A stretch of DNA of 64,000 nt. It comes from Brachyhypopomus gauderio (lineage: Eukaryota; Chordata; Actinopteri; Gymnotiformes; Hypopomidae). Positions 36,919 to 46,416 of this stretch are shown one piece after another. The notes below the pieces were generated by a model, which saw only the letters and a list, made by a program, of their open reading frames with translations, was not told the DNA's origin and did not search any database. Position numbers and translations under genes: made by a program. The stretch lies in the NCBI RefSeq assembly GCF_052324685.1, contig NC_135228.1, forward strand, positions 10,023,386 through 10,087,385, written 5' to 3'. Position 1 is the first letter of the stretch. The number at the start of each line of letters is the position of its first letter.

Positions 36919-37536
36919 TTAATAAGCCTTCTTTTTTTTTTTTTTTTTTTTTTTTAAACATACTAACATCGGTACTGGTTCAAATGAAGATGTAGTGTAG
37001 TAAAATGTTGGATATGTATGTGGGATGTAATAGCGGGGAATGCTCCAAATTGGTGTATTCGCAGCTTCAAAGGTTCCTATTGTGTTTAAAGAAGTGTATG
37101 GCCTGAATTCTGGCTGACCTAAATTGGGATAAGTAAATCTCTGAACTGGCCTCCTCTCTCGCGTAGACCTCCGGCCCAACTGAGACTGACTGTTAGTATT
37201 AGGGGTCATTGTAGGCCTGAGAAAGTCATAACCCAAGGTAGGGTCAACCTCGGGATCCGGCTCACCTCTTGCCGTGATCAAGTTTGGATCATCCTCTAGG
37301 TTTCCCACTTCACTTCTTTGATCAGCGTCATCGCTTTCACTTCTCATTTCAGGTATGATCTCCTGAGTAAATTCTCTTTCCGGTTCCTCATAGGCAGGAC
37401 TTCTATAGGTAAATTCTGGTTCTCGTGTCCCTTCTCTAACAGGTGTCTGTTGAACCAGGCCTCTTGACTGAGTGCAAGTAGGTATGTGCCTAGTCTGATT
37501 GCCCCTGGTAGGTATTCTTCCAGATTCTCCTTGCAA
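36919..37536 (-). pseudogene. C-terminal tail of gypsy pol
   Basis: Acidic, Arg/Pro-rich low-complexity reading with RRSTRERRPVQRFTYPN near 37160, a form of tail seen after the integrase in fish gypsy elements. It is offset by one frame from the integrase ORF, which breaks between 37536 and 37490. It ends in an encoded Lys run from a homopolymer (36929-36957). Confidence 0.6.
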
Positions 37537-38890
37537 CCTCCCCCCTTAGCACTCTCAACCAATATGTAGGCGCCTCCTCCCCACTTTCACTGCTCAAGGC
37601 CTGTTCTTCAGTAATCTCTGGTTTTTCCTGTCTGTGTCTCTTCTCTCTTTGAATCTGTGTTTTGGGAATCACTGGTAAGTCTGTGGGCAAGTCATTGACT
37701 AGGTGCAGCAGATTTCGGTGTAGAACACGTGACTTTTTCTCATCGTTTTCTGGTGTTACTTTGTATACAGGACTGTCATTCATTTGTTGTTTTACAACAT
37801 GTACTGTCTTTTCCCAGTACGATCTTAACTTTCCAGGTCCACCTCTCTCACTCAGATTCCGTACCAACACACGGTCACCCGGTTGTAAGTGCACTCCCTT
37901 CTGATATCGGTCATAATACTTTTTACCTCGCGCGCTGGATCGTTTTCCATTCTCAAATGCGATACGGTAGGCCTCAGTCATTCTTTCCTTCCATTTCTCA
38001 GCGTAACTACTTGGGGCCCGAGCCTCTTCCTCAACCGCCAGACGAAACAGAATATCGACTGGGAGTCGTGGGTGTCTCCCAAACAAAAGGAAGAAGGGTG
38101 AGTATCCAGTCGCCTCATGCCGCGTACAGTTGTAAGCGTGTACGATTTGAGGTAGATGTTCTCTCCAACGACACTTCTCTTTTTCCTCTAGAGTTCTCAA
38201 CATTTGCAAGAGTGTTCTGTTAAATCTCTCTGCAGGGTTGCCCTGTGGATGATAAAGGGTTGTTCTTGAGTGTCCTACTCCTGTCGATCTTTGTAGTGTT
38301 CGAAATAGCTCATTTTCGAACTCGCGACCTTGGTCATGGTGTAACTTTGCTGGAAATCCAAATCGAGGGATGAAATCATTAAACATTCTTTCAGCAGCTG
38401 TTCTCGCCGACTTATCCTTGGTTGCATACACTTGTGCAAACCGTGTAAAGTGGTCCACAATTACGAGTATATACTCATAACCACCCTTACTCGGCTCCAA
38501 GTGGAGAAAATCAATGGACACCAATTCAAGGGGTGCGTGGCTGACAACACTGCCCATTGCTGCTCTTACATGTGTGACCGGTTTCTTTTGTTTTATGCAG
38601 GGGCATAGCCTCGTCACATATGTCTCTATTTCTTTTTTCATGAAGGGCCAATAAAAGTGTTCTCTGGCCAGATTGAGGACTCTCTCTGTGCCAACATGTC
38701 CCATATCATCATGCAGGTGTTTTAGGACCATCTGTTTGTATTTAGCTGGAAGCACAAACTGGCGTCGATGTCTGGTCTTGCGGTATAGAAGACCACCGTC
38801 AATACACAGTTTATTCCACTCGTGCATTAGCCGCTTAGCTTCAACACAAAGTTCCTGTCTCCGATCGTGAGGTGAGTCAGCGGTACACAT
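37490..38890 (-). pseudogene. Gypsy integrase
   Basis: The HHCC zinc domain appears as HDDMGHVG and CPCIKQKK (about 38780-38590). The catalytic core has D in IDFLHLEPS (near 38505), D in HHDQGREFE (near 38330) and E in NPAERFNR (near 38230). A GPY/F-like basic C-terminus (PGDRVLVRNLSERGGPGKL) follows. Continuous for 466 codons. A frame change separates it from RNase H near 38850. It inserts element cDNA into the host genome in the family. Confidence 0.88.
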
Positions 38891-43501: not shown

Positions 43502-45000
43502 CAGTTCTTATTGTAAAAAGGAAACGTAGTCGTCTTGAAAATCACCACCTTCCAATCTTCACTCCCTAACTTAATTTCCGTAAGCTTACCACCCGTCCAC
43601 CGTAGGGCTTGGAAAGGAGGTACCTCATCGATCATAGCCCAAAGCATGATTCTAATATTTCGCCGTTTAGCCAGTTCATCGAAATATGTAAACAGGTCGT
43701 CAGCTCTATTAATTTGCCTCTCAGTCCATATTTTCATTCTCTGACTCCCATCAGTCTCTTTCCAGGACACCCGACACCCATCATCCACTCTCTGAGTCTC
43801 TGCCCTCGCCTGCTGGCCATTTCCATAGCCATAAACATGTCCGTCTGTGTCCCAGAATATAACTTGGTCTTCCCACAACAAATTCAAATTGTACCCAAAT
43901 ACTGGGTCGTGCACCTGTGAATTAGTCTGGCTCCGCAAAACATTTGTAATTTCATCTTCATCTCTACCAGCTGGAGCATTCAGAAGAAGCACATGGGCTC
44001 CCACCGATTGCCCAGTGAAGTCTATTTTCTGATACCTGTCCCATTTGAGGTAGTACCTAGCAGGGTTGATCCGGGCACCTACCCGGTAGCGCCACTCATA
44101 TTTTTCAACCTTACCCGCCACTAGTGACCACTCTCCATCATCGTTTTCGAGCCCCACCACATACATAGATCTACTATCATGAATCTTCGCTCTTGACTTC
44201 TCCATGTTCTCCAATTTGAGCTGCCTTTCCTCCAAAAGCCTCAATTTCAATTCCATCTCATTCATTCTTTGATGATGCTCCTCAAATCCAATTTGTCCTT
44301 CGTCATCCACAGCTGCAACCACAGTCAAGCTGATTAACACCCCCGCTATAGCTCCCAGGACTGCAACGTTTCCATTCCGGCTCCTTGTGGCCACGATATA
44401 GCATACAAAGCAGAGCAGTACTTTCATAATCAAGTTCTGCATGCCAAGCCCTTCCAGTGCCATATTAACAATTCGCATCAGACTTCCACTCAGCAATCCA
44501 GCAAAGCCTGCCAGGGGAGAATCTCCCACAGCTACTGTGCCCACAATATACCTCTTCCAGGATTGCATGTAGTGCACCCCCCAGGCGGCGAAGAACTTGT
44601 CCTCGCCCACCGGGAAGCACTCAACTCCAACGCAAACCTCTCCTTGCCTCGTTGGACAACTGTACTTCACACTGGTCTCCTTCCCTGCCACCAACGAAAC
44701 AATGTTTGGCGAAGTCTTGCAAGTTGTAGACACTACAGCTGCTGTGCAGGTCTCTCCACTAGCCACCACCAATGTCCCAACATCTCTCTTGTCAACAACC
44801 AAGGTAACCTGCCCTGAACAGGTCGTCACTTTCTTCAAATCTAATAATACCGGATTCAGTCCTATCCAGCACGCGGCTCCAGCTGGAGTCCACAACTTGT
44901 CTACTACCAACCGTGAATAATTCGATTTCTTCTCCACCCGAACCTGGGCAGACACACTCTCTCGACAACCTAGAACGCACCCATGCTGCTCCATGCTCAC
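43492..45000 (-). pseudogene. Envelope C-terminal part plus unrecognised domain
   Basis: Residue numbers count from 45000. About 20-130 form a Cys-containing beta-rich segment in the position of the class II domain III. About 131-185 form an amphipathic stem. Residues 187-231 form a two-span membrane hairpin (LLCFVCYIVATRSRNG between spans). Residues 236-275 are a charged coiled coil, and 278-502 a soluble domain I do not recognise (VDDGCRVSWKETDGS near its middle). The frame differs from the upstream ORF; the break lies between about 45000 and 44880. The zero frame stops at 43492 next to the slippery site. Confidence 0.7.
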
Positions 45001-46416
45001 GCACCATAACCTCTATTCCATTAGCTGTTGACCTCCCCCACTTAATAGCTCTGTTCTCTTCCACCAATTTCCCTTTGACTTCTGTCATGTATGGCATCAT
45101 AAGTACACTAGCAGGGTCTGAGCTCATCACTCGTGCTTCCCAGCCCGCATCTCCATTCCTATATACTACCAGATGTGCGTTCCCAAATTCCTCATCAATA
45201 GATAAATTACACTCACCTGTGTACGTCACCAACCCAGGAATAGATCCAAAAAACCTGTTAGCTCCTCGATGTAGCTCATGCTCATTGCCTTCAAATACTC
45301 GACAAGGGTCTTTTCCAAATTGCCACTTCCCGTCTGCACCCCTAGTGCACAGCCCGGGAAAAATCCCATCTGGCCCTGACACATCACCGATACTCACTTC
45401 CTTGTGCAATCCATGACTGTCATCCATAACAACTAAGGAACTATGGTAAACCACCTTCTGTAGCAGATATACCCAGACGTAATCTGCTGGTTGTGTTCCC
45501 ACATCCTTCAAGTCCACACAAGTGCATTCAGCTCCTCTGCCAAAAACCACACAGCCATTGCCCCAACCACGGGACACCCATTCTTTTCGACACTGTCGGC
45601 CCATCTCGCGACATTCCACATCACTCGTAGGGCACACGGCCTTTGATTCAGCTGTGTGTTCCAAATTCAAAGGTACAACATAGGAAAAACTCAATCCCTG
45701 TTCTAACGTTGCTTGGTTCAACTTGAATTGCACAGGTCTCTTAGCCGCTGCCACGCCCACCTGGACACATTCATGGTCCTCCACAGTGAACCACAGCTGG
45801 CTCTCCTCCTGGCCATGCACCACGTCAAACTGCAACATATCCTGACATCCCCCTACCAGGAGGACACCATGGTTATACAGATACACCAAACTCAAACCAA
45901 GAAGGGCGTTCCGCAATGTGCCAGATTTCATCCTCATGGCCGCCATCAAAAACACCAACACTGGCCAGTGTCTAGCTGTCAGCATCACTGTTCCATCAAG
46001 CCATCTGTCCCAACTCTCATGTACTCTCACGGCCTTGCCTATCAATTCCTGATCCTTTTCTTTCTTTATTCTACGGGGTGTTGCCACCGAACGCCTTTCT
46101 CGGCGCAGGACTGTCCTAGCGCTCTCTGCTATAACTTCATAATGCATGTCGATTTTCGAGCCCCCAACTCTACAATCTATTACGCAATAAAGCCAGTCCT
46201 GTGTGGGTTCGTCCCACTCGGTGTTACAGGCACAGGGTCCCCTGGCCTGCACATACTCAACCCCGTTCTCGTGACACTCGACTTGTCGAGTGTCTATTCG
46301 CATCTTCACAGGGGTGTCTCCTTCTACAACCTTCTCCCGACACCCCCGCACCTCAAAATGAGGATTTTCCCATCCACTGAAAAAAGCAACATAAGCAATA
46401 GGCACAAGACTTCCAT
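44792..46416 (-). pseudogene. Flavivirus-like prM/E-type envelope polyprotein, N-terminal part
   Basis: ATG 46416 (A at -3, G at +4) begins a hydrophobic signal-like stretch, then a frame break occurs near 46375. In the main frame (numbered from 46405) a Cys-rich pr-like domain precedes a furin-type RRERR followed by SV (46105-46091). A short M-like ectodomain and a two-span hairpin (about 146-185) come next. An E-like ectodomain then contains the class II fusion-loop pattern SRGWGNGCVVFGRG (45574-45533) within a Cys cluster. In flaviviruses this loop inserts into the host membrane at low pH. The frame stops at 44792. This is an inactive genomic copy. The identification rests on the fusion loop, furin site and topology together. 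Confidence 0.82.

What the first reader, a model, noticed from the sequence alone, without database searches (positions are those of the whole stretch)
36919..46416. Gypsy-type retroelement preceded by a flavivirus-like prM/E envelope region
Same-strand order is envelope-like polyprotein, membrane ORF, gag, protease, RT, RNase H, integrase. The envelope region has a furin-type RRERR/SV site, two-span membrane hairpins and the class II fusion-loop pattern RGWGNGC within a Cys cluster. Retroviral and errantivirus envelopes normally lie downstream of pol and are class I or baculovirus/phlebovirus-type. A flavivirus-like class II envelope placed upstream of gag would be a distinct element type. 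The membrane ORF overlaps the gag start by 77 nt, which argues for a single unit. I do not know whether this class has been described.
Basis: partly seen in the sequence, partly recalled or inferred. Interest (0 to 1): 0.95.

Follow-up and report, generated by a model that had tools for sequence, protein, structure and literature searches.

The report
Flavivirus genome piece fused to retrotransposon
A fish chromosome carries one insertion in which the front part of an unknown flavivirus-like RNA genome is joined to a retrotransposon, most likely because the retrotransposon's copying enzyme jumped onto viral RNA; it is probably a fossil accident that shows how RNA viruses can enter animal genomes, not a new kind of mobile element.

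Summary
In detail: on the minus strand a flavivirus-type prM/E region (Flavi_glycoprot E = 2.5e-8, above cut-off) is followed by a membrane ORF, gag, protease, RT, RNase H and integrase; the 77-nt overlap is real. The interpretation (a distinct element type) is mostly not supported. A paralogous empty site on another contig shows that window 46502 to ~35695 is one insertion. It has a 3' LTR only, followed by unprocessed LTR-PBS spacer (GATT), no target-site duplication, and 6 bp of target lost. Its left end lies 86 nt before the envelope ATG. In 4 of 4 relatives examined, PBS and gag ATG are 165-203 nt apart with no envelope between. The viral part is more than an env: prM-E-protein X, then an in-phase U_UUA_AAC slippery site at the frame change into a membrane ORF, as reported for aquatic flavivirids; its frame runs into gag without a stop. 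Best reading (0.85): gypsy reverse transcriptase switched template onto a flavivirid RNA and the chimeric cDNA was end-joined into the chromosome. An env-upstream-of-gag element is kept at 0.08. No sibling copy was found; structure prediction failed (mean pLDDT 31.5 and 35.8).

The parts
35694..46502 (-). whole insertion; empty site on C6 (L072 4124|4131), 6 bp of target (L072 4125-4130) missing, no TSD
46417..46502 (-). 86-nt AT-rich leader before the env ATG; near-perfect hairpin at its start; no match to leaders of four relatives
   Evidence: (z -1.3 to -2.1); composition changes at 46345-46471, not at 46502, so its viral origin is inferred
46327..46416 (-). ATG and signal-peptide-like start in another frame than ORF A (frame change between them)
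44792..46405 (-). ORF A: pr, furin-type site 46105-46085, M, E from about 45847, fusion-loop motif 45571-45551
43492..45000 (-). ORF B: E C-terminal part, double membrane span, then protein X from about 44310 (2 cysteines, no match)
43469..43501 (-). candidate -1 frameshift signal: U_UUA_AAC 43501-43495, zero-frame stop 43494-43492, 6-nt spacer, 6-bp hairpin 43488-43469
   Evidence: hairpin no more stable than shuffles (z -0.78); function untested
42830..43459 (-). membrane ORF (-1 frame, open from 43507), at least two spans, runs 77 nt into gag
   Evidence: no Pfam match
42643..42906 (-). gag start (ATG 42906) and gag N-terminal part
40928..42673 (-). gag continued (ORFs 42386-42673 and 40928-42226), CCHC and protease-like motifs
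40490..40897 (-). protease-RT linker ORF, aligned with relatives
39642..40529 (-). reverse transcriptase ORF (RVT_1)
38827..39627 (-). RNase H ORF
37490..38890 (-). integrase ORF (H2C2, rve)
36919..37536 (-). pol tail ORF, ends in a run of 24 A
35699..36859 (-). 3' LTR TGTGACAC...TTGTAACA with two copies of a 72-nt internal repeat
35695..35698 (-). GATT after the LTR: spacer that in relatives lies between 5' LTR and PBS, kept at the insertion end

Best explanation
The locus is one germline insertion of a chimeric cDNA. A Ty3/gypsy-type reverse transcriptase copied its own RNA from the 3' LTR back through pol and gag, switched template near the gag start onto the genomic (or segment) RNA of an unknown flavivirid, and copied that RNA to near its 5' end. 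Shown: one insertion, LTR at one end only, unprocessed LTR end, no TSD, 6 bp of target lost, flavivirus-type prM/E at the other end in the same sense, different composition of the two parts. Inferred: the template switch itself, that the left end is (close to) an RNA 5' end, end joining, and that the frame change at 43501 is a programmed -1 frameshift. No present function: both parts decay freely.
For: Empty paralogous site. 3' LTR followed by GATT, the spacer seen before the PBS in C8, C87 and C24 relatives. No 5' LTR. Flavi_glycoprot and PDB E matches. prM-E-X in open frames, U_UUA_AAC in phase in the frame overlap (the only slippery heptamer at 501 in-phase positions of ORF B; 0.8% by shuffling), as reported for aquatic flavivirids (PMC8269200, PMC7551563, PMC12942856; passages). 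Viral frame runs into gag without a stop. Sense-strand GC skew 0.25-0.39 in the viral bins against -0.08 to 0.18 in gag-pol. Relatives without envelope (4 of 4). In Aedes, non-retroviral insertions sit with Ty3/gypsy elements and template switching is proposed (PMC5497376, passages).
Against: No donor gypsy copy of this lineage in the assembly: best other pol-region matches are C1 gag fragments at 90% and 84%, then 72% or less (40 of 98 candidates scored). The ORF starts with a signal peptide and has no capsid in front, unlike classical flaviviruses. The junction lies close to the gag ATG, a coincidence under a random jump. The leader is AT-rich and its viral origin is unproven. One LTR on C15 (L064) also keeps GATT, with CTGTG on both sides, so GATT alone does not prove abnormal integration. 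No exogenous relative was found, though the protein searches could not see long polyproteins.
Confidence: 0.85

Rival explanations
1. A genuine retroelement or retrovirus-like agent that carries a flavivirus-derived glycoprotein module upstream of gag; this copy is an incomplete cDNA that stopped before the PBS and was end-joined.
For: Own ATG with a signal-peptide-like start and no capsid; junction at the gag start; no gypsy sibling in the genome, as if gypsy and viral parts arrived together.
Against: No 5' LTR, single truncated copy, no intact or second copy; a -1 frameshift signal and a further viral ORF cut off without a stop; composition break; four of four relatives lack it.
Confidence: 0.08
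2. Two events: a gypsy element inserted first, and a flavivirid cDNA later replaced its 5' LTR and leader.
For: Such nested insertions are common in fish repeats (general knowledge).
Against: At the empty site left and right flanks are 6 bp apart, so a later deletion would have had to end exactly at the old LTR border; the share of reading-frame lesions in the two parts follows their lengths (3 of 10, P = 0.46).
Confidence: 0.04
3. The flavivirus likeness is chance, or the locus is an assembly chimera.
For: One assembly, one copy; structure models too poor to test the fold.
Against: Score above the curated cut-off and the only such place in 796 Mb; motif, furin site and order agree; both parts carry the decay of resident DNA; flanks agree with C6 on both sides.
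Confidence: 0.02

Closest known systems
Endogenous flavivirid elements of ray-finned fish (tamanavirus and 'X2' lineages; PMC11089739, passages; Bamford 2022 cited there, not held)
   Same: flavivirid sequence in a fish germline
   Different: here prM/E and the 5' part, fused in one insertion to gypsy gag-pol-LTR; whether this locus is among those already reported could not be checked
Flavivirus-type insertions beside Ty3/gypsy elements in Aedes (PMC5497376, passages)
   Same: non-retroviral RNA virus DNA linked to LTR elements; template switching proposed
   Different: here the chimera is one molecule with both ends readable against an empty site; vertebrate host
Aquatic flavivirids with a -1 frameshift: infectious precocity virus (PMC8269200), sea-cucumber flavivirus-like contig (PMC7551563), Cyclopterus lumpus virus (PMC10770923, PMC12942856); passages
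   Same: E-type glycoprotein region near the 5' end, -1 slippery site; sea-cucumber contig without a recognised capsid
   Different: fusion-loop motif here is the orthoflavivirus-type RGWGNGC; protein X has no match; NS3/NS5 absent from the insert
Retroelements with captured envelopes: errantivirus (baculovirus-like env) and Anakin (chuvirus) (PMC12440569, passages); Atlas virus with phlebovirus-like class II env (PMC9094657, abstract start in listings)
   Same: LTR-element gag-pol linked to another virus's fusion glycoprotein
   Different: there env is a working gene of the element (its place after pol is recalled); here it lies before gag, single copy, without 5' LTR

Membership tests
Flaviviridae, prM/E-type glycoproteins | E central/dimerisation domain similarity above curated cut-off | tested here: met
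   34 bits against 27; PDB E chains E = 1.6e-8
Flaviviridae, prM/E-type glycoproteins | prM profile match (Flavi_propep / Flavi_M) | tested here: inconclusive
   no match at E <= 1; furin-type site and order present
Flaviviridae, prM/E-type glycoproteins | class II fold | tested here: inconclusive
   single-sequence models pLDDT 31.5 and 35.8; no fold search made
Flaviviridae, genome | NS3/NS5 in the same molecule | tested here: not met
   none in the insert nor as PF00972/PF07652 in the genome (the NS5 control rang nowhere); expected if the piece is cut off
Aquatic flavivirid -1 frameshift | X_XXY_YYZ in phase, 5-9 nt spacer, stem-loop, -1 frame open | tested here: met
   hairpin not above shuffles (z -0.78)
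Ty3/gypsy (Metaviridae) | gag-PR-RT-RH-IN order with Pfam matches | tested here: met
Ty3/gypsy (Metaviridae) | paired LTRs and TSD at this locus | tested here: not met
   3' LTR only, no TSD
   env ORFs single copy; relatives without env
Non-retroviral endogenous viral element by LTR-element template switch | viral and LTR-element sequence in one insertion in the same sense, one LTR, no normal integration marks | tested here: met
Non-retroviral endogenous viral element by LTR-element template switch | exogenous viral relative collinear with the viral part | tested here: inconclusive
   none found; searches blind to long polyproteins

The most novel reading that the evidence does not exclude
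A retrovirus-like agent of fish whose genome carries a flavivirus-derived structural module (signal peptide-prM-E-X, with a -1 frameshift) upstream of gag, which entered this germline once as a 5'-truncated cDNA.
Probability: 0.08. Interest if true: 0.95.

Novelty: new variant of a known kind. Interest (0 to 1): 0.62.

Why it matters
Fossils of positive-strand RNA viruses are rare in vertebrates (PMC11089739), and how they enter chromosomes is mostly inferred from neighbouring retrotransposons. Here one molecule keeps the mechanism: LTR end, gag-pol, jump point and viral part, with an empty site to read both ends against. It also records an unsampled flavivirid with an orthoflavivirus-type fusion-loop motif, no capsid in front of prM and an unmatched protein after E. 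The insertion is probably younger than a duplication whose flanks differ by 1.6%, so a relative of the virus may still exist in fish.

Tried and rejected
Protein searches with ORF A (E <= 0.001) and ORF B (E <= 10) gave no hit; the tool compares only proteins of 0.55-1.75 times the query length, so whole flavivirid polyproteins were never candidates and these negatives are weak. IMG/VR was scanned with ORF A (10 pattern matches, none confirmed) and with a degenerate fusion-loop pattern (45 contigs); none of these 45 nor the C2 stretch matched any of 11 window ORFs by tblastn at E <= 1. Of two sub-threshold PF00869 places on C2, the first was read and looks like chance; the second was not read. 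Both structure models were unusable, so no fold search was made. No RT tree was made. Extra stretches in the C6 copy (about 337 nt) and in the window (47105-48524) were not pursued. Literature: searches; among titles and abstract starts listed I saw no flavivirus-type envelope in an LTR element; one search found no paper; most subscription papers are not held. PMC8554740 and PMC12440569 (passages) gave context only. Shuffles were simple letter shuffles.
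Full report
What is there. On the minus strand the window holds, in order, an envelope-like ORF (44792-46405), a second ORF (43492-45000), a membrane ORF (42830-43459), gag (ATG 42906), protease-like, RT, RNase H and integrase ORFs. The envelope ORF scores 34 bits with Pfam Flavi_glycoprot (cut-off 27) and matches flavivirus E chains in the PDB. The furin-type site and the RGWGNGC motif are as described. No prM profile matched at E <= 1, and my hydropathy scan found no span in the M part of ORF A, though it found the double span after E. 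In the 796-Mb genome PF00869 passes its cut-off only here; two further places score 15.4 and 14.3 bits, of which the first was read.

One insertion. DNA next to the envelope (window 47105-46500) has a 98% copy on contig C6. Read with its surroundings (L072), C6 runs from that stretch straight into sequence that lies in the window at 35693 and below. The left flank ends at L072 4124 and the right begins at 4131; the six bases between are missing from the window. The first right-hand match is short (38 bases, 94.7%), but it is followed by 234 and 146 bases at 94.9% and 97.9%. So everything from 46502 to about 35695 came in together, without a target-site duplication. Over five flank stretches I counted 54 mismatches in 3299 compared bases, 1.6%, one stretch being higher at 4.7%. 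If C6 is the unfilled copy of a duplication, the insertion is younger than that.

Its ends. The right end is an LTR, 36859-35699, TGTGACAC...TTGTAACA. Other copies of parts of this LTR lie elsewhere, mostly at 80-90% (one 513-nt stretch at 93.6%). A related element on C8 has an LTR pair of about 1200 nt, 98.8% alike. After the window's LTR come GATT(T) and then target DNA. In relatives the 5' LTR is followed by GATTCT (C8, C87) or GATTAT (C24) and then an 18-base primer-binding site (tRNA-Pro type, recalled); C19 has another spacer. So the window copy keeps part of a spacer that normal integration removes: the C8 element and the copy in L066 end at CA with 4-bp repeats on both sides (TAAT, TAAA; read). 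One LTR on C15 (L064) also keeps GATT, with CTGTG on both sides, so this mark alone is not proof. No 5' LTR lies in the window. The left end is an 86-nt leader before the env ATG at 46416. It starts with a predicted hairpin (z -1.3 to -2.1), does not match the leaders of four relatives above simple shuffles (best 55 of 300) and is AT-rich: the composition change on this side lies at 46345-46471. That it is a viral 5' untranslated region is inference.

Relatives. The gag query gave 103 matches in the genome. In the 4 relatives whose 5' region I examined (C8, C24, C87, C19) the PBS-to-gag distance is 165-203 nt and no envelope lies between; their RT identity to the window is 80-84% over the aligned parts. 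Gag homology begins at about the ATG (C24: 0 of 300 shuffles reach it). No close sibling of the window's own gag-pol was found: apart from itself, the best DNA matches are C1 fragments at 90% and 84%, then 72% and below (40 of 98 candidates scored), and the 801-nt stretch over the gag start matches only itself. That counts against a resident donor and somewhat for an incoming agent.

The viral part looks like a cut-off polyprotein. ORF B runs from E through two membrane spans into protein X, which stands where NS1 would, has 2 cysteines and no match. ORF B ends at TAG 43494-43492. Directly before it, in phase, stands U_UUA_AAC (43501-43495), and a 6-bp hairpin follows after 6 nt; the -1 frame, open from 43507, is the membrane ORF. 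It is the only slippery heptamer at 501 in-phase positions of ORF B, and shuffling puts one in the overlap in 0.8% of cases. ORF A also has one such heptamer at 536 positions (46385), which I take as a T run without meaning. The hairpin is not unusually stable for its composition (z -0.78). Aquatic flavivirids are reported to use such signals: IPV with a 6-nt spacer (PMC8269200), a sea-cucumber contig with a slippery site in the envelope region and no recognised capsid (PMC7551563), and others in a review (PMC12942856); passages. The -1 frame reaches gag without a stop and ends 77 nt inside it. The viral bins from 46400 to 43201 have a sense-strand GC skew of 0.25-0.39, gag-pol bins -0.08 to 0.18. 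The best change point is 42601, with a 3-log-likelihood range of 42571-43042 that includes the gag start.

Decay. I count 8 frame changes (3 viral, 5 gag-pol) and 2 in-frame stops (gag-pol); one viral frame change may be the programmed one. At 0.8% divergence (half the flank value) and the flanks' indel ratio (12 to 54), about 11 frame breaks and 3 stops are expected over the 9.5 kb, and the split between the parts fits their lengths (P = 0.46 for 3 or fewer of 10). Both parts were thus probably open on arrival and have decayed freely since.

Mechanism. Minus-strand synthesis in LTR elements starts at the PBS, jumps to the 3' end and proceeds through pol and gag (textbook knowledge). A switch near the gag start onto flavivirid RNA, copied to near its 5' end, gives this order, sense, one-sided LTR, retained spacer and short leader. 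Such a product lacks what it needs for a second LTR and has to be end-joined, which fits the lost 6 bp and the absent duplication. The link of Ty3/gypsy elements to flavivirus-type insertions, and the template-switch proposal, are in PMC5497376 (passages). I put this at 0.85.

What could still be new. The signal-peptide start without a capsid, the junction at gag and the missing gypsy siblings fit it; the missing 5' LTR, the single copy, the frameshift signal and the cut-off viral ORF speak against it. I put it at 0.08. The likelier novelty is the virus: prM was detected only in orthoflaviviruses and some relatives, and jingmenvirus E lacks the canonical fusion loop (PMC11410658, passages), so this was probably an orthoflavivirus-like lineage with an unusual 5' organisation.

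Limits. One assembly, species not named. Structure models failed (mean pLDDT 31.5 and 35.8), so the class II fold rests on sequence. Protein searches could not see long polyproteins. Whether this locus is among the fish flavivirid fossils already reported (PMC11089739, and the paper it cites, which is not held) could not be checked.

Noticed in passing
window 31371-35089: Two 772-bp direct repeats, 98.7% identical (31371-32139 and 34318-35089), enclose or overlap a 764-aa ORF with 30-nt and 27-nt tandem repeats and a weak DUF4939 match below cut-off: LTR-like pair of a possible gag-only element.
   Followed up: partly
window 28498-30369: 623-aa open frame with a full DDE_Tnp_1_7 match (E = 1.9e-89): an intact-looking piggyBac-type transposase (the name piggyBac is recalled).
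   Followed up: partly
G000:C24 about 1947000-1969400: Three gag-pol units of a related element stand head to tail 8,075 bp apart, two with a 2112-aa open frame, as if sharing LTRs.
   Followed up: no
window 35739-35810 and 36551-36622; L055; L054: LTRs of this family hold two copies of a 66-72-nt stretch 800-1200 nt apart; the same layout recurs in the C8 and C24 relatives at 100% within each. The stretch ends in a splice-donor-like CAG/GTAAGC in one copy (by eye).
   Followed up: partly
L066 (G000:C49:1682000-1686500): An LTR copy with TAAA on both sides has a piece of the pol tail (81% aa identity) inside it, as if an internally deleted element had been integrated normally.
   Followed up: partly
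window 48524-54005: C2H2 zinc-finger ORF 53430-54005 and a 541-aa ORF 51844-53469 without Pfam match on the minus strand, upstream of the insertion and in its orientation; part of the stretch 48524-50973 is duplicated on C6.
   Followed up: partly
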